NCBI GenBank assembly: GCA_958295525.1
Contig: OY282355.1
Coordinates: forward strand, 1,675,504-1,739,503
Direction: 5' to 3'
Length of the DNA: 64,000 bases
Source: an uncultured Dehalococcoidia bacterium
GTDB lineage: Bacteria; Chloroflexota; Dehalococcoidia; Lucifugimonadales; Australimonadaceae
Shown here: piece after piece, positions 37,694 to 52,493 of the stretch
Position numbering within the stretch: the stretch's first letter is position 1
Layout of the letters: the number at the start of each line of letters is the position of its first letter
Position numbers and translations under genes: made by a program
The notes under the pieces: generated by a model
The model's database searches: none
Told to the model about the DNA's origin: nothing
Seen by the model: only the letters and a program-made list of their open reading frames with translations

Positions 37694-40174
37694 ATGACGA
37701 CGACTCGCCGCCACGCCGCCAACCTTCGCTACGAGCCCCGCGAACTCGACCGCAAGTGGCAGCGGCGATGGGAGGAGGACGGACTCTACGCCGTCAACGA
37801 CGACGACCCGCGTCCGAAGTGGTACGCCCTCACAATGTACCCCTACCCCTCGGGCGACCTGCATATCGGCCACTGGTACGCGATGGCGCCCTCCGACGCG
37901 CACGCCCGCTTTATGCGAATGCGCGGCTACAACACGCTGCATCCGATGGGCTTCGACGCCTTCGGCCTGCCCGCCGAGAACGCCGCCATCAGCAGGGGCG
38001 TCCATCCGTCCACGTGGACGATGGGGAACATCGAGCGCATGCGCGCCCAATTGCGCTCGATGGGCGCGGTCTACGATTGGGGGCGCGAGATCGTCACCTG
38101 CGACCCCGCGTACTACAAGTGGAACCAGTGGCTCTTTCTGCGTATGTACGAGAAGGGCCTCGCCTACCGCGCCTCCGCGCCCGTCAACTGGTGCCCCACC
38201 TGCCAGACCGTTCTCGCCAACGAGCAGGTCGTGGACGGCAAGTGCGAGCGCACCGGCGACGTCGTGATCCGCCGCGAAATGGACCAGTGGTTCTTCCGCA
38301 TCACGGACTACGCCGATGAACTGCTCGATTTCTCCAGCCTCGTGGACTGGCCGGAGCGCATCAAGACGATGCAAACGAACTGGATCGGCCGCAGCGAAGG
38401 CGTGGACATCGCGTTCGATATATCCGAGCACGGCCTCGACGAGCGCGAGATCCGCACGTTCACCACGCGCATAGACACCATCTACGGCGTGACGTTCCTC
38501 GCGCTCGCGCCGGAGCACCCGCTCGTCGAGCGCCTTACGACGCCCGACCGCCGCGCCGGCGTTGAGGACTACGCCGCCCGCGCCCGCGAGGCGTCCGAAA
38601 TAGACCGCCTCTCCGCCGAGCGCGAAAAGAGCGGCGTCTTCACCGGCGCCTACGCCGTCAACCCGCTCGACGGCTCCCGCGTCCCCATCTGGGTCGCCGA
38701 CTACGTGCTGCTCACCTACGGCACGGGCGCGGTGATGGGCGTGCCCGCCCACGACGAGCGCGACTTTGAGTTCGCCCGCAAGTACGGCCTCGACGTCCGC
38801 GTCGTCGTCGCGCCACCGGGATGGGACGGCGGGCTGCTGCGGGAGGCGTGGACGGAGAAGGGCGGAACGCAGGTCAATTCCGGGCCGTTCGACGGCATGC
38901 CCAACGCCCAGGGCTACGAGGCCATCGCCGACCACGTCGAGGCGCAAGGCTGCGGCGAGCGCGCCGTCGGCTACCGTATGCGCGATTGGCTCATCAGCCG
39001 TCAGCGCTACTGGGGCACGCCCATCCCCATCGTCTACTGCGGCGCCTGCGGCGCGCTCCCCGTCCCCGACGCCGACCTCCCCGTCCTGCTGCCCGGCGAC
39101 GCCGAATTCAAGCCCACCGGCGAGTCGCCCCTGCGCTACCACGACGGCTTCCTGCATACGTCCTGCCCCAAGTGCGGCGGCCCCGCGACCCGCGAGACCG
39201 ACACGATGGACACGTTCGTCGACTCCTCGTGGTACTTCCTGCGCTACGTCAGCCCGAACGACGACGACGCGCCGTTCGACCCCGCCCGCGTCCGCGATTG
39301 GAACCCCGTGGACCAGTACACCGGCGGCGCCGAGCACGCCGTGATGCACCTCCTCTACGCCCGATTCTTCACCAAAGTCATCCGCGACCTCGGCCTCGTC
39401 GAATTCGGCGAGCCGTTCCTGCGCCTCTTTAATCAGGGCACGGTGCTCTCCGGTCGGATGAAGATGAGCAAGAGCCGCGGCAACGTCATCGCGCCCGACG
39501 ACTACGTGCAGGAACTCGGCGCCGACGTCGTCCGCCTCTATCTGATGTTTATGGGCCCATGGGAAGGCGGCGGCGACTGGAGCGACTCCGGCATCAACGG
39601 CGTCGCCCGATGGGTCAACCGCCTGTGGGACCTCTGCCTCAAGCCCGCCGACGCGCTCCCCGAAAGCGCCGCCGAATCCGACCGCGCCCTGACCCGCAAA
39701 GCGCACCAAACGATCCGCGCCGTCGTCGAGGGCTTGGAGCGATTCAAGTTCAACACCGCCATCGCCGCGATGATGGAACTCACCAACGAGATGGCGCCCG
39801 CCTACGAAACGGCGAGCGTTTCGGCGGGCGTCTGGCGCGAGGCCGTCGAGTCGCTTCTCCTCCTCCTCGCGCCGATGGCGCCGCACCTCGCCGAGGAACT
39901 CTGGGAGCGGACGGGCCATCCCTACAGCGTCCATCAGCGTTCGCTGCCGGAATGGCGCGCCGACCTCGCCGCCGTCGAAGAGGCCACGCTCGTCGTGCAA
40001 GTGAACGGCAAGGTGCGCGACCGCATCGCCGTCCCCGCCGCCGTCAGCGAGGACGACGCCAAAGCGACCGCGCTCGCATCCGCCCGCGTCCGCGCCCACA
40101 CGGACGGCAAAGCCGTGCGGCGAGTCGTGTTCGTGCCGGGTCGCTACCTCGTGAGCGTCGTCACGGAGGGGTGA
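37694..40174 (+). CDS. leuS: Leucyl-tRNA synthetase
   Basis: An 826-residue class-I synthetase that charges tRNA-Leu. HIGH is HIGH at 57-60 (GDLHIGHW), the KMSKS loop is KMSKS at 590-594, and the CP1 editing domain with TYGTGAVMGVPAHDERDFEFA is in place. The C-terminal anticodon-binding and leucine-specific parts end normally. ATG at 37694 starts the family sequence (MTTTRRHAANLRYEPRELD); the in-frame extension back to 37607 lies in repeat/IS debris. It is the only housekeeping gene on the plus strand in the first 56 kb. Its upstream region was rearranged by the IS remnant, so its promoter may have been changed. Confidence 0.96.
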   Translation: MTTTRRHAANLRYEPRELDRKWQRRWEEDGLYAVNDDDPRPKWYALTMYPYPSGDLHIGHWYAMAPSDAHARFMRMRGYNTLHPMGFDAFGLPAENAAISRGVHPSTWTMGNIERMRAQLRSMGAVYDWGREIVTCDPAYYKWNQWLFLRMYEKGLAYRASAPVNWCPTCQTVLANEQVVDGKCERTGDVVIRREMDQWFFRITDYADELLDFSSLVDWPERIKTMQTNWIGRSEGVDIAFDISEHGLDEREIRTFTTRIDTIYGVTFLALAPEHPLVERLTTPDRRAGVEDYAARAREASEIDRLSAEREKSGVFTGAYAVNPLDGSRVPIWVADYVLLTYGTGAVMGVPAHDERDFEFARKYGLDVRVVVAPPGWDGGLLREAWTEKGGTQVNSGPFDGMPNAQGYEAIADHVEAQGCGERAVGYRMRDWLISRQRYWGTPIPIVYCGACGALPVPDADLPVLLPGDAEFKPTGESPLRYHDGFLHTSCPKCGGPATRETDTMDTFVDSSWYFLRYVSPNDDDAPFDPARVRDWNPVDQYTGGAEHAVMHLLYARFFTKVIRDLGLVEFGEPFLRLFNQGTVLSGRMKMSKSRGNVIAPDDYVQELGADVVRLYLMFMGPWEGGGDWSDSGINGVARWVNRLWDLCLKPADALPESAAESDRALTRKAHQTIRAVVEGLERFKFNTAIAAMMELTNEMAPAYETASVSAGVWREAVESLLLLLAPMAPHLAEELWERTGHPYSVHQRSLPEWRADLAAVEEATLVVQVNGKVRDRIAVPAAVSEDDAKATALASARVRAHTDGKAVRRVVFVPGRYLVSVVTEG

Positions 40175-40262
40175 GGGGGAGGGGATGAAGAGGAGGAGGG
40201 TTGTGGAGCCCGGCTGCCGCCCAACCGTCGCATGACTCGCCTCGCCGAACTCGCGGGGAGGC

Positions 40263-40273
40263 TGAGGTAGAGT
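40263..40273. repeat. Left 11-bp inverted repeat of helicase cassette
   Basis: TGAGGTAGAGT, a perfect inverted match to ACTCTACCTCA at 42543-42553. It ends 5 bases from the stop codon of the minus-strand helicase gene. The rest of 40175-40262 shows nothing. Confidence 0.6.
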
Positions 40274-40277
40274 GACC

Positions 40278-42536
40278 TCACTGCAACGGCATCAGCACGC
40301 CATCCTTGAACTCCATGTCGGGGCCGTTTTCGACAGCGGAAAGGATGACTTTGGCAAGTTCTATGCCGTACACCTTATCGATGGGAGGTGCGCTCATTTC
40401 GTACCGTTTCGCGGGCTCAATGCAGTTCTGACACCCTTTCTGGCACTTGCACTTCTGAGCGATTTCTACTCCTTTCTTGAGCGCTTCTGGGAAGACTTCG
40501 AAGAGTTTCTTGGCTACGCCAATCCCGCTCGGGTAGTTTTCGTAGTAGTAGGCGGTCGCTCCGTCACGCACGATTGACATAGTACTGACGTCGAAACGGT
40601 CGACCGGCATGACGAACAGCGCTCCGACTCGCACCAAGTGCTCGAGCGCGCCAATCCCAGCCCTAGCCGTTTCGTTTTCAGGCACAGTTATCCAGAACGA
40701 GTGCAGATTTCTGGACGAGTCAGCGTCAGATTCGTTACTGGTCTCGCGGACATCGCCTGTGCGTTCGTCGACCAACTTGTAGCCGTCAAGGTTAGTGGTG
40801 ACATCTATGGCGCCGTAGAAAATCTCCACTTCTCCATAGCCGTTGCCCTTGAAGTGTTTCTGCGTAGGAGGATACGTGAAAAAGCGTGGTTCGGTTTTCA
40901 AGTGCTGGTCGGTTTCCGCCAAGACAACCGCGCTCGCCTCGTGGGCGTGCACCCGATACCGTCTCCCGAAGAACGGGAATATGGCTCCAATATACGCCTC
41001 TCGAAATCGCCTCAATGCGGAAATCTGCCCGATTACCTCATTCCCAGATTTCAGATCGTAAGACGGCCCAATACTCCCTCGTATGTTGAGTCTAATCTGT
41101 GGTTTGTCGCCTTTGGCGAGCCTCCTTCTGAATTCCGCAGCGGCTTGGTAGAACGTCTCGCCTAAGGCAGATTTGTCTTCAGGCAGCAACTGGCCATCAG
41201 TTTCCTCAATTAGAGAAGGGAGGTGGCTCCGTATGAGTTCCTCGTTATTGGGATCTATGACCAAATGATCGAAAGGTTTGTTCAAGAACTCTTGCAGGTT
41301 GCTGACAAAGAAGTTGTCGATGGGGTCGTTCATCGCGTAGAACAAAACGAAAGCGTCCCTGTCCCACCCACGCCCTGCGCGACCGATCTGTTGCCACGCC
41401 GACATAATGCTGGAAGGGAATCCCGCAAGGATCACCCCGTCCAGCGTGCCGATGTCTAGACCCAATTCCAGCGCGTTGGTTGTGAGGATGACGTCGACCT
41501 CGTGCGCCTTGATGCTGCGCTGTATGTCCACGCGCCTATCAGCCCTCAAGTCCGCGTGGTACGCAACTATTCTGTCAGGGTCAAGTCCTTTTGATGCGGC
41601 TTCGCTTCTGCATTTGCCGAACGCCTCTTCCAAAAACTTCTTTGTTGGGCAAAACACAAGCACCTGCAGCCCGTCCTCGAGGGCGGCGAGGGCAGACTGT
41701 TCGACACGGAGCCGGAGTATGTCACGGTATCGATAGTCTGGAATGTCTGGCTTGACGAACGCAAAACGCCTCTCAGGACGCAGCGTGTTCCTAGCGGACA
41801 TCACCTCAACCGTCCGTCCCGTAAGCGATTTGGCGTGCTCTTGCGGGTTCGCGCATGTCGCGGTGGATAGGAAGATCTGGGGCGAAACGCCCAAGCGATG
41901 CAAATGGCGGAAGAACCGGCGGAGGAGAAGGGCCATGTTGCCGCCGAAGAATCCCCGGTATTCGTGCATCTCATCAATGACGACATACCGCAGATTCCTC
42001 AGAAAGCCGTCCCAAAGATCGCGATTACTCAAGAACGACGTGTTCAAGTATTCGGGGTTCGTCAAGAGGATATGGGGCGGATTTGTCCGCAGAGCCTTCT
42101 TGTGCTCCTCGTCCGTATCGCCGTCGTATGTCCATGACTCAATTGAGAGAGGAGCGCAGAGGCTTCTGATCTGCTCGCGCTGATCGAAAGCAAGCGCCTT
42201 CATCGGGTAGATCATCAAGGCGTGAGAGCCGGGGTTGCGGATGAGCGTGTCCAACATCGGCGCGGCGAAGGCCGCAGTCTTGCCGCTCGCGGTGGGAGAC
42301 TCCAAGACAACGTCCGCCCCGCTCAGCGATTTTTCGATGGCGTCCGCTTGGTGTTGGTAGAGGCGCGGTATCCCCGCAGCCATCAGAGCGTCGCGCACTT
42401 GCGGCGACAGGCTGGGCGGCCAGTCGGTTGCGTACTGAGGCTGGATGCGCTCGGCGACGCCTTTGACGGTTAGGTCTTCATCACGCAGCGCATCGTTTTC
42501 CCGCAAACGCGTTATGAGGCGTTCCATATCAACCAT
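40278..42536 (-). CDS. MrfA/YprA-like DExH helicase with DUF1998 C-terminus
   Basis: A 752-residue helicase, close to the size of Bacillus MrfA (YprA). Q-like and Walker A segments (LYQHQADAIEKSL, ESPTASGKTAA), the DExH box (VIDEMHEYRGFFGG), LSTATCANP, and the RecA2 motifs TTNALELGLDIG and QQIGRAGR cover the motor. The C-terminal ~280 residues end in a four-Cys cluster (KCKCQKGCQNCIEP) typical of DUF1998. MrfA works in repair of mitomycin-type DNA damage with the exonuclease MrfB; no mrfB is seen nearby. Base composition is visibly lower in GC than all neighbours, which suggests acquisition. Perfect 11-bp inverted repeats flank it. ATG at 42536 is close behind a promoter. Confidence 0.85.
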   Translation of the reverse strand: MVDMERLITRLRENDALRDEDLTVKGVAERIQPQYATDWPPSLSPQVRDALMAAGIPRLYQHQADAIEKSLSGADVVLESPTASGKTAAFAAPMLDTLIRNPGSHALMIYPMKALAFDQREQIRSLCAPLSIESWTYDGDTDEEHKKALRTNPPHILLTNPEYLNTSFLSNRDLWDGFLRNLRYVVIDEMHEYRGFFGGNMALLLRRFFRHLHRLGVSPQIFLSTATCANPQEHAKSLTGRTVEVMSARNTLRPERRFAFVKPDIPDYRYRDILRLRVEQSALAALEDGLQVLVFCPTKKFLEEAFGKCRSEAASKGLDPDRIVAYHADLRADRRVDIQRSIKAHEVDVILTTNALELGLDIGTLDGVILAGFPSSIMSAWQQIGRAGRGWDRDAFVLFYAMNDPIDNFFVSNLQEFLNKPFDHLVIDPNNEELIRSHLPSLIEETDGQLLPEDKSALGETFYQAAAEFRRRLAKGDKPQIRLNIRGSIGPSYDLKSGNEVIGQISALRRFREAYIGAIFPFFGRRYRVHAHEASAVVLAETDQHLKTEPRFFTYPPTQKHFKGNGYGEVEIFYGAIDVTTNLDGYKLVDERTGDVRETSNESDADSSRNLHSFWITVPENETARAGIGALEHLVRVGALFVMPVDRFDVSTMSIVRDGATAYYYENYPSGIGVAKKLFEVFPEALKKGVEIAQKCKCQKGCQNCIEPAKRYEMSAPPIDKVYGIELAKVILSAVENGPDMEFKDGVLMPLQ

Positions 42537-42542
42537 GCGCGT

Positions 42543-42553
42543 ACTCTACCTCA
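42543..42553. repeat. Right 11-bp inverted repeat of helicase cassette
   Basis: ACTCTACCTCA, the inverted partner of 40263-40273. It includes the -10 hexamer of the helicase promoter and lies 6 bases upstream of the start codon. Confidence 0.6.
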
Positions 42554-42572
42554 ATACGGCGTTCTCTTTCAA
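42543..42572 (-). promoter_or_regulatory. Promoter of the helicase gene, probably leaderless
   Basis: TTGAAA (42572-42567) and TAGAGT (42548-42543) on the minus strand are 18 bases apart. The -10 ends only 6 bases before the ATG, so transcription would begin at or beside the start codon. Confidence 0.5.
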
Positions 42573-42579
42573 CCCCCCC

Positions 42580-43272
42580 TCACCCCACTCTCAGCGCCCA
42601 CGCGCGGGCGTGCGGGTGCGGCGCCGACGCCTCAGCCTCGACGCGCAGGCCCGATTCGGCGAATATCCAGCGCCAATCGTCGAGCGTGTATTTGTTGTGC
42701 GATCGAAACTGCTCCAGCGCGCGACGGTAGCGCGTCTCCTCAGGCTCGCCCGGCTCTATCATTCGCAGCGTCAAATAGTCGCGCATCGGTTGGCGAAACC
42801 AGTCGTACAGCAGCATGCGCCCGCCGGCGCCGATGACGCGCGCGGCCTGTTCGCGCAGAAACGTGAACGGATCGGCGAAGGTGTGCAGAACCGCCGTCAT
42901 CGTCAGCAAGTCAACCGCGCCGTCGGCGAACGGCAGCGGCTCCGCCTCGGCGTCCATCAGACGCAGCGACGGGACGGGCCCGGCGTAGTCGAGCGCGGCG
43001 GCGTTCTCGATCATCGCCTCGTCCGCGTCCAGCCCGTGGAGCGCGGCGTCCGGCAGGCGGGCGGAGAGGTCGCGCAGGAAGAGGCCGGGCCCCGGCCCCA
43101 CGTCGGCGATGACGGGGCGCGGCGGCAGCCCGGGCGCGACGGCCTCGTCCCAGAATCGCCAGAAGGCGTCGTTGAAGCGCACGGCGTAGCGCTCCAACTG
43201 GCGGCGGAGGGCGCGCTCGTCCCGCCGCGCCGGAGCGCCGCCTTGCGCCTCCGCCGCGGGAGCGGACGCCAC
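42580..43272 (-). CDS. Class I SAM-dependent methyltransferase
   Basis: A 230-residue methyltransferase with the SAM-binding motif VIADVGPGPGLFLRDL, the acidic ribose contact in LHGLDADEAMI and the post-II segment VDLLTMTAVLHTFADP. It belongs to the UbiE/methyltransferase-11 type; the substrate cannot be told. It starts with GTG at 43272, one base past the stop of the CMD-family gene, so the two are coupled. Confidence 0.8.
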   Translation of the reverse strand: MASAPAAEAQGGAPARRDERALRRQLERYAVRFNDAFWRFWDEAVAPGLPPRPVIADVGPGPGLFLRDLSARLPDAALHGLDADEAMIENAAALDYAGPVPSLRLMDAEAEPLPFADGAVDLLTMTAVLHTFADPFTFLREQAARVIGAGGRMLLYDWFRQPMRDYLTLRMIEPGEPEETRYRRALEQFRSHNKYTLDDWRWIFAESGLRVEAEASAPHPHARAWALRVG

Positions 43273-43273
43273 G

Positions 43274-43684
43274 CTACGCCTCCGTTTTCGCGCTGACGCC
43301 TTGCTCCGCGAAGACGTCGCTCGCGGCCTGCATGCCGTTGAACGCGGCGGGCAGCCCGGCGTAGGGAATCGCCTGCAGGAACACCTCGGCGATCTCCTCG
43401 GGCGTGATGCCGAGGCGCAAAGCGTAGCGCGTGTAGGCCGCGACTTGCGGCGTCCGCCCCATTGCGGTCAGCATCCCCAGCGTGATCATGCAGCGCGTCC
43501 GGAGGTCGAGCCGCTCTCGCGACCAGATTTCTCCGAAGTTGAAGCCGATGACGAAGTCCTCGAGGCCGGGAACCATATCCAGCCCGGCGGCGTTCCCCGT
43601 GCTGCGCGAGCCTTCCGAACCGCTGATCGCCATCCGAACCTTGCGCCCCCGCGCCTTGCTCTCTTCCGCCTGATGCAACGTCAT
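43274..43684 (-). CDS. Carboxymuconolactone decarboxylase (CMD) family protein
   Basis: A 136-residue all-helical protein. IWSRERLDLRTRCMITLGMLTAMGR, followed by RYALRLGITPEEIAEVFLQAIPYAGLPAAFNGM, is the CMD/PcaC pattern. The CxxC pair of peroxidase-type AhpD relatives is absent, so a decarboxylase or lactonase-like role is more likely than peroxide reduction. GGAGG precedes ATG at 43684. In the 140-base gap upstream (43685-43824) TAGCAT is a possible -10. Confidence 0.8.
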   Translation of the reverse strand: MTLHQAEESKARGRKVRMAISGSEGSRSTGNAAGLDMVPGLEDFVIGFNFGEIWSRERLDLRTRCMITLGMLTAMGRTPQVAAYTRYALRLGITPEEIAEVFLQAIPYAGLPAAFNGMQAASDVFAEQGVSAKTEA

Positions 43685-49280: not shown

Positions 49281-52200
49281 CTAGCGCGGCCCGCCCCATA
49301 CATGCAATTCATTGCAATAGCCTGGCGTGTTGGAGTCCCACTTGAATGAAAACCGTTCGATCTGGAAAGTCTCGTGGTTGACCTCCACCGTGTATGTGAG
49401 GTGCCTTCCTTCTTCGTATGGCAGGTTGCCTGTCAATTCCACTCGCCCGCTGGACTCTGATCCGCGCACTGCACGGGAGAGTAAAATCGGAATCATTCTG
49501 ATAGGATCGGCCCTATGTCCGACCTCTTGGGCTATCTCTCTGCCGTAGTAATGATAATCATTGCATCCCTGTTCGGCATAAGCCGCTTGGTGATGGTCCG
49601 GCGACGCATCGGGCGCATATCCTGCCGCCTTGGCTTCCAATAGCCATCGCTCCGGCCGGTCTGGAACCAGCGGCGCGTCGGTAATACGCACCAACATCTG
49701 GGCTTCTTGCTTTGTCATCCCAGGCTCCAACGCCGCGTTCAAGGCCAATACCTCTGCATCCATCTGACTAAGCAATGGACTACCCGATTCGGGGTAGTGG
49801 GACATCAGCGAGGTCACCTTCGTGGAATGAGACATATCCAGTACGGCATGCAAGACCTCGTGCGCCATCAGATGCGTTCCAAAACCGTATTTGTCAGCGC
49901 ACGCCGAAGCCCGCATGAAGATAGTCACTTCCCCGCGCGTGACTAAGCCGCGTCTCTCCCAAGCGGAGCCTAAACCACATACTCGCCCATCCGATGCACG
50001 CCGCGGCCCACTAACGATGTGCAGGTCAGCGTCCTGCTCTTCATCAACTCGCTGAAACTGCAATCCCGCAGCTTCATTGATTAGCAGGGCTGCCGCATTC
50101 ATATAACTATGGAGCGACATATCCCGAGCGTACCATTTGACTACGTTGGAATGCCAATGGACGACATAAGGCACATCCCAACCGGAGCATCCCGCTATGT
50201 GGTCTTCTCGGTTCACGCGCGCAGGTCTATCCCAGTAGCAATCCCAGACCTCCCTCTTCACAGAGTACGGCGTTGGAGCGGGAGTAGGCGTTGCGGTTGG
50301 GCGCGGGGTGGGCGAGGGAGTGGGCGTTGGGCGCGGAGTCGCGGTGGGCGTTGGGGTAGGCCGAGGGGTAGGCGTCGGCGTTGGGGTAGGGCGCGGGGTG
50401 GGAGTGGCGGTCGGGCAAGGCGGGAGGGTCGGCGTAGGAGACGGGGGAGGCGCAAGGGCGCTCGCGGGAGGAGACGTCGGAGACGGCGTTGCGGACGCCG
50501 TAGGCGGGGGCTCGCTCGCCGGCGCCGGCGTTGGGGTCGCGGCGGCGGCGCGGGCTTCGCGGCAACGCTGCGCCGGCGCGTGGTCGCGGACGGCTTGCGC
50601 GAACAAGCCGCGCTGATGCCGCAGCCAGAACGACCAGTCTTCGTGGGGGCCCCAGCCCGGGACGCGCTCCCGCTCCAAGCGGCGCGTTTCCACCAAGAAC
50701 GCGGCTATCTCCAACTGCGTCTCCAGCGTTTCCAAGCGCGCGCACGCTTCGAGGATGGGCAGCGCCTCAAGGCCGCCCAGCCCCGTCTCGAAGGCGGCGG
50801 CGCTCTCGGCGAGGGCGTCGGCCGCTTGCTGCGCGCTCCATCCTCGCGCCCACTCGCGCCATTCGTCCGTGAGGGGTTGCGGCGGCCAATCGGGCGTAGG
50901 GCTAGGCGTAGGGGACGGCGCGGCGGTCGGCGTAGGGGTGGGAGTCGCGGCGGCGGTCGGAGTCGCGGTTGGCGTCGGGGTCGGCGTAGGCCGCGCCGGG
51001 GAGTCGTCGCAGGGGAACGGCGTCGCGGTGGGAGTCGGCGTCCAAGTCGGCTCGGGCGTCGCGGTTGGCGTAAAGGCGGGCGTTGGCGTAGCCGTAGGCG
51101 CGGGCGCGGGAGCAGGCGGCGGCTCCGCCTCCTGCAGGTTCAGATAGATGATGATCGCGGCGAGCCCGGCGAGCGTCGCAAGCGCGAGGGCGCCCCAAAT
51201 CCGGTATCGCCAGTCGTCCGAACCGCCGCCGCTTGGCGGGACAGGCTCTCTGGGCGGGGGCGGGGGCGGAGCCGAGGGCTGGCGATACCTCTCCTTGAAA
51301 CGCTCGCTCTCCTCCCTGTCGCGTTGCGCCTGCTCGCGTTGCGCCTGCTCGCGCTCCTCCCTGTCGCGCTCCGCCTGCTCGCGTTGCGCTTGCTCGCGTT
51401 GCGCCTGCTCGCGTTGCGCCTGCGCCCGTTCGGCTTGCTCGCGTTGCGCTTGCGCCTGCCACGGCTGATCGGAGGCGACCGCGCCCCGGCCATTGCAAAG
51501 GGAGCACTCCGTGCCTGCGCGAATGCTCTCGGACTCAACGAGCAAGGCGCGCGCTTCGGAGACTGCCTGCATCCGCGAGGTGGCGTCCGGCGCCTTGTTC
51601 CGGTCGGGATGATGCTCCATCGCCTTCCGGCGGAACGCCTGCGATATTTCCTCTGGAGAAGCGCCTAACGGAATGTCCAACACCCGGTGATATTTCGTGG
51701 CGACTCTGCCTGATCCTCCGCACGACGGGCATTGCGCCGGCGCCGCTCGCCCCGCGTGTCCGCTCCTTGCCGAGTTCGCCTCTTGGCGGCGGCGGCTCTC
51801 TTCCGCTGCCTTACGCGCTTCTTCTGAGCGGCGGCGGGCTTCCGCCGCCCTGCGCGCTTCCTCTGAGCGACGGCGGGCTTCCTCCGCAGCGCGGCGGTTC
51901 TCCTCACGGCGGCGCGCCGAGTTCGCCTCTTGGCGGCGGCGGCTCTCTTCCGCCGCCTTACGCGCTTCCTCCTCGCTGCGGCTCCGCTCTTCCGCCGCCC
52001 TGCGCGCTTCCTCTGAGCGGCGGCGGGCTTCCTCTGCGTCGCGGCGGTTCTCCTCACGGCGGCGCGTCTCTTTCTCTTCTTCCCGCGCCTGCTCGCGCCG
52101 CCTTTCGAGGACGACCTCGCTTTCGTAGCCGACGCCGAAGCACTGCGGGCAGCGCAGCCATTCGCCGGTATGCGATGCGGTCTGCCCGTGCCCGTCGCAG

Positions 52201-52493
52201 AGCGCGCAGACGCCGCCGTCCACGAGCCGGACGTCGCGCCCCTGCCGGCGGCGGCGCATCAGATGCTCGCCGCAGAGCGGGCTATGCGCCTCGCTGAACG
52301 GCTCGTCGGCGCAATAGCCGACGCCGCGCTCTTGGCATCCGGGTTCGCCGCAACGCGCTTGCCGGGGATTGTGGACGTGCATCCGCCAGAGCGTCGGCGG
52401 GAAGGATCGCCCGCACTGCGGGCAGGATCGGAGATGGCCGCCGCCGGACGCGCCGCCCTGCGCTCGATAGTAGCCGCGATTTTCGACGCCCAT
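49281..52493 (-). CDS. J-domain / CxxC zinc / transmembrane / matrixin-like metalloprotease fusion protein
   Basis: A 1070-residue mosaic. Residues 24-118 hold paired cysteines (24/27, 48/53, 61/74, 96/99, 115/118), some of the DnaJ zinc type CxxCxGxG. Residues ~125-242 form a charged coiled coil with a tandem ~50-residue duplication. CPSCGGSG (255-262), a J-domain (~268-320) with His295-Pro296-Asp297, and CSLCNGRG (330-337) follow. Then come AQREQ-type repeats, one membrane helix (~431-453), Thr-Pro linkers (~458-540, ~650-742) around a helical domain, and a C-terminal domain with HEVLH (878-882), third His889 and Met897 in SLMSHY. The J-domain side should be cytoplasmic and the protease outside. 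The last ~800 bases are lower in GC than the rest. I know no described family with this order. ATG at 52493 has no clear ribosome site. Confidence 0.75.
51768..52064 (-). repeat. Internal tandem duplication of the coiled-coil coding segment
   Basis: Residues 144-193 and 194-242 of the fusion protein are near-identical, each opening with RRREENRR and closing with [10 protein letters not shown]. The DNA copies are 52064-51915 and 51914-51768. The first has one extra codon and two or three substitutions. Confidence 0.85.

What the first reader, a model, noticed from the sequence alone, without database searches (positions are those of the whole stretch)
40263..42553. Low-GC MrfA-like helicase bounded by perfect 11-bp inverted repeats
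TGAGGTAGAGT and ACTCTACCTCA lie 5-6 bases outside the two ends of a gene whose base composition differs from all neighbours. By chance such a match at both borders is unlikely. The whole may be a 2.29-kb mobile cassette or an integrated single-gene module. MrfB is missing, so the helicase may act alone or in defence.
Basis: partly seen in the sequence, partly recalled or inferred. Interest (0 to 1): 0.6.

Follow-up and report, generated by a model that had tools for sequence, protein, structure and literature searches.

The report
Horizontally acquired solitary MrfA-like DNA helicase
A low-GC DNA-repair-type helicase gene has been dropped between two housekeeping genes of a Dehalococcoidia-type bacterium and is found in scattered, unrelated bacteria, but the short matching repeats at its ends look like a coincidence and not the ends of a mobile element.

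Summary
The sequence observation is correct. TGAGGTAGAGT (40263-40273) and ACTCTACCTCA (42543-42553) frame an intact 752-aa ORF (40278-42536, minus strand), about 55% GC in a 68% GC region. The 'mobile cassette' reading is half right. The gene is clearly an acquisition: all five same-genus genomes have the syntenic leuS-methyltransferase interval without it, and its 58-67% identical relatives are scattered over Chloroflexota, Binatia, Gammaproteobacteria, Spirochaetia and Verrucomicrobiota bins, mostly lower in GC than their surroundings and at unrelated sites. The inverted repeats are not shown to be element ends: no relative has them, and there is no target duplication, adjacent recombinase or second copy. 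One arm covers the gene's start signals, the other a weak hairpin at its stop codon. Random segments of this window show such an IR within 30 bp at about 1 in 2000, i.e. about 0.02 genes per window, before post-hoc choice. The protein is an intact SF2 helicase of the YprA/MrfA family without a conserved partner gene. It resembles the 'YprA-only' repair branch and lacks the extra zinc modules described for defence helicases. Most likely it is a solo 3'-5' ssDNA-translocating repair helicase; a solo defence role is not excluded.

The parts
40278..42536 (-). 752-aa SF2 helicase of the YprA/MrfA family (DEAD + Helicase_C + MZB/DUF1998), horizontally acquired
   Evidence: Pfam DEAD 115 bits, Helicase_C 62, MZB 48; TIGR03817 380 bits over residues 36-734; motifs SPTASGKT, DEMH, STAT, GRAGRG and Cys4 C-x-C-x3-C-x2-C intact; best solved relative MrfA 6znp, E=3.9e-77; structure match to MrfA, E=2e-42
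40263..40273 (+). left arm of the 11-bp inverted repeat; part of the palindrome TGAGGTagagtgACCTCA, which reaches into the stop codon
   Evidence: exact match; in the helicase mRNA it folds as a 6-bp hairpin with no U-run, region z=-1.1
42543..42553 (-). right arm of the inverted repeat; overlaps the helicase initiation region (GAGG, and TAGAGT 6 nt before the ATG)
   Evidence: exact match; TANNNT 5-8 nt before a candidate start in 5 of 44 window genes against 0.7% of internal start codons
37607..40174 (+). leuS (leucyl-tRNA synthetase), left border of the insertion site, conserved in the genus
   Evidence: 79-84% identity in G001-G005
42580..43272 (-). SAM-dependent methyltransferase-like gene, right border, co-directional with the helicase and 43 nt upstream of it
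   Evidence: 68-76% identical and syntenic in G001-G005, where a second, diverged copy follows
40175..40277 (.). intergenic DNA between leuS and the helicase; in all five same-genus genomes a 126-aa membrane-protein-like gene lies in this interval instead
   Evidence: that gene has no match in the window's genome; interval sequences

Best explanation
This is a solitary, horizontally acquired MrfA/YprA-type helicase gene. It sits in a variable intergenic spot behind leuS, where the genus otherwise keeps a small membrane-protein-like gene and sometimes extra cargo. Shown: the ORF is intact, relatives evolve under strong purifying selection, the gene is absent from the same site in the genus, and its relatives are patchy across phyla with no conserved partner. 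Inferred from the MrfA family: the protein loads on single-stranded DNA, uses ATP to move 3'-5', is gated by the OB/connector/Zn-binding canopy, and unwinds damaged DNA for repair, leaving the product to host nucleases because no MrfB is linked. The 11-bp inverted repeats are most likely incidental. One copy covers the gene's own start signals (GAGG and a TAGAGT -10-like box 6 nt before the ATG). The other covers a small hairpin at its stop codon. The gene probably entered by homologous or illegitimate recombination, with loss of the resident small gene; this step is inference.
For: Absence and synteny: leuS, a small membrane-protein-like gene and methyltransferase genes are contiguous on single contigs in G002-G005 (in G001 for leuS residues 496-855), with no helicase. 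The small gene is missing from the window's genome. Patchiness: close relatives in 4 of 118 related genomes, none in the genus or family, and 17 loci in Chloroflexota and four further phylum-level groups. The tree puts them in one clade (96/98) apart from the genome's own second MrfA-like copy and from B. subtilis MrfA, with a Binatia row paired with a Dehalococcoidia row (95/89). GC of the relatives is 48-57%, mostly below their surroundings. Function: helicase motifs and Zn cysteines intact; dN/dS 0.07-0.08 in the three pairs that could be computed; the only CxxC is that of the MZB cluster. Closest to MrfA in sequence and fold (Foldseek E=2e-42; VIA Z=29, 472 aligned, rmsd 5.4, next non-MrfA chains Z=22). 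IR incidental: absent from relatives, no TSD, single copy, a 12-bp IR made by neighbouring gene ends, overlap with start signals.
Against: The per-gene chance of such a close IR is low (about 5e-4), so a real role is not ruled out. The leuS 3' end is also the neighbour of the Spirochaetia relative (L047), which hints at a preferred site. Some relatives sit near restriction, Hma-like or integrase genes, which would fit mobility and defence. The repair function is inferred from homology only.
Confidence: 0.66

Rival explanations
1. The helicase is a single-gene anti-phage or anti-plasmid defence module: it recognises invading or replicating foreign DNA and unwinds or blocks it, and is passed between environmental bacteria as an accessory gene.
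For: Patchy cross-phylum distribution. Accessory neighbours in some relatives: HmaC/DUF499 and AAA_21 (L049), HsdR-like protein and DUF3800 (L045), methyltransferase with Mrr-like domain (L044), integrase (L042). [quoted passage not shown] The same spot in G005 holds a low-GC gene with a weak TIR-effector match.
Against: No conserved partner gene; most relatives lie among ordinary metabolic genes. Best full-length model is TIGR03817 (380 bits over residues 36-734), while PADLOC models match mainly the helicase core (SngC 162 bits over 43-406). The protein has no CxxC beyond the MZB cluster, whereas defence YprA proteins carry extra Zn modules (PMC12458937).
Confidence: 0.22
2. The two 11-bp repeats are terminal inverted repeats of a non-autonomous 2.29-kb element mobilised in trans.
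For: Exact arms 4-6 nt from the gene ends; only 2 of 4000 random segments do as well; the gene is foreign.
Against: Arms absent from the relatives; no target duplication; single copy; no transposase neighbour; the arms overlap start signals and reach the stop codon.
Confidence: 0.06
3. The gene is ancestral to the clade and was lost in most lineages, with low GC due to relaxed selection.
For: Relatives occur in several genomes of the same order.
Against: They sit at different sites; the gene is low in GC in most hosts; the clade mixes phyla; selection on the relatives is strong, not relaxed.
Confidence: 0.06

Closest known systems
Bacillus subtilis MrfA/YprA (PDB 6znp, 6znq, 6zns)
   Same: SF2 core, MZB/DUF1998 Cys4 domain, near-identical length (752 against about 750 aa), best hit in sequence and fold
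   Different: no adjacent MrfB; about 25-30% identity; a separate clade in the tree
'YprA-only' branch of the YprA family (PMC12458937)
   Same: no conserved genomic context, compact architecture without added zinc modules
   Different: whether this clade is among those described there could not be checked; this lineage looks horizontally transferred and patchy
TIGR03817 DECH_helic (MrfA-like helicase model)
   Same: aligned over nearly the whole length, 378-395 bits for five clade members
   Different: far below the curated cut-off of 874 bits
DISARM DrmA, Druantia DruE, Dpd DpdF/DpdJ, Shango SngC helicases
   Same: helicase core similarity
   Different: matches mostly restricted to the core; no accompanying defence operon at this locus

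Membership tests
YprA/MrfA helicase family | SF2 helicase core plus C-terminal MZB/DUF1998 Zn domain with four cysteines | tested here: met
   Pfam above cut-offs; C696, C698, C702, C705 invariant in the clade
YprA/MrfA helicase family | MrfA-like overall fold | tested here: met
   MrfA chains rank 1-4 in Foldseek; VIA Z=29 against 22 for the next family; model pLDDT 70.6, domain arrangement uncertain
MrfAB repair system | MrfB (YprB) exonuclease encoded next to the helicase | tested here: not met
   neighbours are leuS and a methyltransferase-like gene; RNase_H_2 proteins lie elsewhere in the genome
TIGR03817 DECH_helic | score above the curated cut-off | tested here: not met
   380.6 bits against 874.1
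Defence YprA systems (DISARM, Dpd, Druantia, ARMADA, TALON) | conserved operon partners | tested here: not met
   no partner shared across the loci; only L043, L044 and L046 share neighbours
Defence YprA systems (DISARM, Dpd, Druantia, ARMADA, TALON) | inserted domains with extra CxxC zinc modules | tested here: not met
   752 aa, a single CxxC at residue 702, inside MZB
IR-bounded transposable or MITE-like element | terminal IRs conserved among copies | tested here: not met
   no shared IR at the relatives; single copy in the genome
IR-bounded transposable or MITE-like element | target-site duplication | tested here: not met
   no direct repeat of 4 bp or more in the 20 bp outside each arm
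MrfA repair function | 3'-5' DNA helicase activity and protection from mitomycin C | not testable with these tools
   needs biochemistry and genetics

The most novel reading that the evidence does not exclude
A solitary, low-GC YprA-type helicase clade that spreads between phyla as a one-gene defence or genome-maintenance module, with some preference for the 3' end of leuS, outside every described YprA defence operon.
Probability: 0.18. Interest if true: 0.5.

Novelty: new member of a known kind. Interest (0 to 1): 0.24.

Why it matters
It shows a repair-type helicase behaving like an accessory, horizontally shared gene, in a family whose other branches became anti-phage systems. It gives a concrete clade (about 18 loci) in which to ask whether partnerless YprA helicases do repair or defence. 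It also shows that a short perfect inverted repeat around a foreign gene is weak evidence for a mobile cassette.

Tried and rejected
IRs as mobile-element ends: rejected on relatives, missing TSD and single copy. Further copies of the arm in the genome: the only other exact copy is in rny coding DNA. Phage, plasmid and viral-contig carriers: no close relatives (plasmids 26-29% identity in the best rows; phages partial matches only; viral scan empty). Conserved neighbours: none beyond one group of three related loci. L005/L037, L007/L048 and L008/L049 have identical flanks and are the same loci from two collections, so they are counted once. The tree's long branch L009 is not used for any claim. 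L052 is a fragment whose ends were misparsed and is excluded. The TANNNT result is rough, since start codons were chosen automatically.

Full report
Observation. The repeats and the gene are as described. The ORF is 40278-42536 on the minus strand, 752 aa. TGAGGTAGAGT ends 4 nt before its stop codon and its reverse complement begins 6 nt beyond its ATG. The region is 54-56% GC in a window of mostly 65-70%.

How unlikely are the repeats? Among 4000 random 2.26-kb segments of the window, 2 had an exact IR of at least 11 nt within 30 bp, 12 within 60 bp and 60 within 100 bp. An even longer, 12-bp perfect IR lies just outside, made by the G-rich ends of leuS and the methyltransferase-like gene. 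The 11-mer has one further exact copy in the 2.51-Mb genome, in the rny coding sequence (rny named from the sequence, not from a family search). The repeat is therefore uncommon but not compelling.

What the arms overlap. The right arm holds GAGG and TAGAGT, the latter ending 6 nt before the ATG. TANNNT boxes 5-8 nt before a candidate start occur in 5 of 44 window genes, against 0.7% of internal start codons (starts chosen automatically and several candidates per gene, so indicative only). The left arm is part of TGAGGTagagtgACCTCA, which reaches into the stop codon; it folds as a 6-bp hairpin without a U-run, and the region is not unusually stable (z=-1.1).

Is it an acquisition? Yes. In G002-G005 the leuS gene, and in G001 its 3' part, is followed on the same contig by a 126-aa membrane-protein-like gene, then two methyltransferase-like genes and a homologue of the window's 136-aa ORF 43274-43684, with no helicase. 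The window's genome has the helicase, one methyltransferase-like gene, and no match to the small membrane-protein gene. The spot is variable within the genus: G005 carries an additional 50%-GC gene with a weak TIR-effector match and G001 another extra ORF. Homology with relatives stops at the leuS and methyltransferase stop codons, so the junctions cannot be fixed more closely than 40175-40277 and 42537-42579.

Where are its relatives? Only 4 of 118 related genomes carry a close one (62-67% identity), none in the same genus or family; the other matches are the roughly 30-33% identical MrfA-like paralogue or more distant helicases, with one at 39%. A scan of species genomes gives 17 loci in Dehalococcoidia and other Chloroflexota, Binatia, Limisphaerales, Gammaproteobacteria and Spirochaetia bins. 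Bin assignments may be wrong in single cases, but several contigs are long (184 kb to 3.3 Mb). In the tree these form one supported clade apart from the window genome's own second copy and B. subtilis MrfA; a Binatia row pairs with a Dehalococcoidia row. The gene is 48-57% GC, mostly lower than its surroundings (L040 and the truncated L049/L008 show no difference). None of 15 distinct relatives with both borders readable, nor two with only the upstream border, shares the window's IR; their longest IRs within 150 bp are 5-10 bp. dN/dS is 0.07-0.08 in the three pairs where dS could be computed.

Context of relatives. No partner gene is conserved; only three closely related Chloroflexota loci share neighbours. 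Most neighbours are ordinary genes. A few are accessory: an integrase in L042, a DNA methyltransferase with an Mrr-like domain in L044, an HsdR-like protein and DUF3800 in L045, HmaC/DUF499 and AAA_21 proteins in L049, a PIN protein in L047. In L047 the helicase starts just behind leuS, as in the window but in the other orientation. That coincidence is recorded, not explained.

What the protein is. Pfam DEAD, Helicase_C and MZB; TIGR03817 over nearly the full length but far below cut-off, for this and four other clade members; all motifs and the four zinc cysteines intact. MrfA is the best solved relative by sequence and by structure; the model is of moderate confidence (pLDDT 70.6, pTM 0.57, 13 sequences), and the region around 480-610 is poorly predicted. 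PADLOC models hit mainly the helicase core.

Mechanism. MrfA and the related SftH are 3'-5' DNA helicases; MrfA works in mitomycin C repair with the exonuclease MrfB, and its OB-connector-DUF1998 canopy is thought to ratchet on single-stranded DNA (PMC12458937; PMC11194089, abstract start only). By homology the window protein most likely translocates 3'-5' on single-stranded DNA and assists repair of blocked or damaged DNA without a dedicated nuclease partner. The family survey describes a repair-related branch with no conserved context ('YprA only') and a defence branch whose members carry added domains and zinc modules (PMC12458937). The window protein is compact with a single CxxC and partnerless, which fits the first. 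Its formal place in that tree was not tested. The defence reading stays open because of its distribution and some of the neighbourhoods.

'MrfB is missing.' Correct for the locus. The genome has two RNase_H_2 proteins elsewhere, one a ~177-aa protein with similar-length frames in four same-genus genomes, and a second MrfA-like helicase shared by the genus. Whether either exonuclease works with this helicase is unknown.

Verdict. A real, foreign, functional-looking gene of a known family. The inverted repeats are real but probably incidental, and the single-gene mobile cassette defined by them is not supported.

Noticed in passing
L047:5940-6010: In a Spirochaetia bin the related helicase also starts directly behind the 3' end of leuS, in the opposite orientation to the window's arrangement.
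   Followed up: partly
L066:6247-7194: In G005 the same leuS-methyltransferase gap carries an extra 50%-GC gene with a weak TIR-effector match (33.6 bits), so the gap looks like a variable spot.
   Followed up: partly
L069:6973-7677: In G001 the gap holds another extra ORF, a proline/threonine-rich lipoprotein-like protein with no Pfam or NCBIfam match.
   Followed up: no
window 42580-43272: The window's genome has one methyltransferase-like gene where the five same-genus genomes have a tandem pair.
   Followed up: no
L042:5950-8300: The helicase of an Anaerolineae bin is followed at 44 nt by a tyrosine integrase gene, and a 10-bp IR (GTATAGTGTG) lies on both sides of the helicase.
   Followed up: partly
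L049:2-5512: Relative next to HmaC/DUF499, AAA_21 and DUF4238 proteins, a defence-like neighbourhood; the helicase itself is cut by the contig end.
   Followed up: partly
window 49284-52493: 1070-aa ORF with weak codon bias (GC3-GC2 0.14), with a low-GC dip at 49.0-50.5 kb and a TATACT box 8 nt before its ATG.
   Followed up: no
window 40168-40179 and 42575-42586: 12-bp perfect inverted repeat GGGGTGAGGGGG formed by the ends of leuS and the methyltransferase-like gene.
   Followed up: yes
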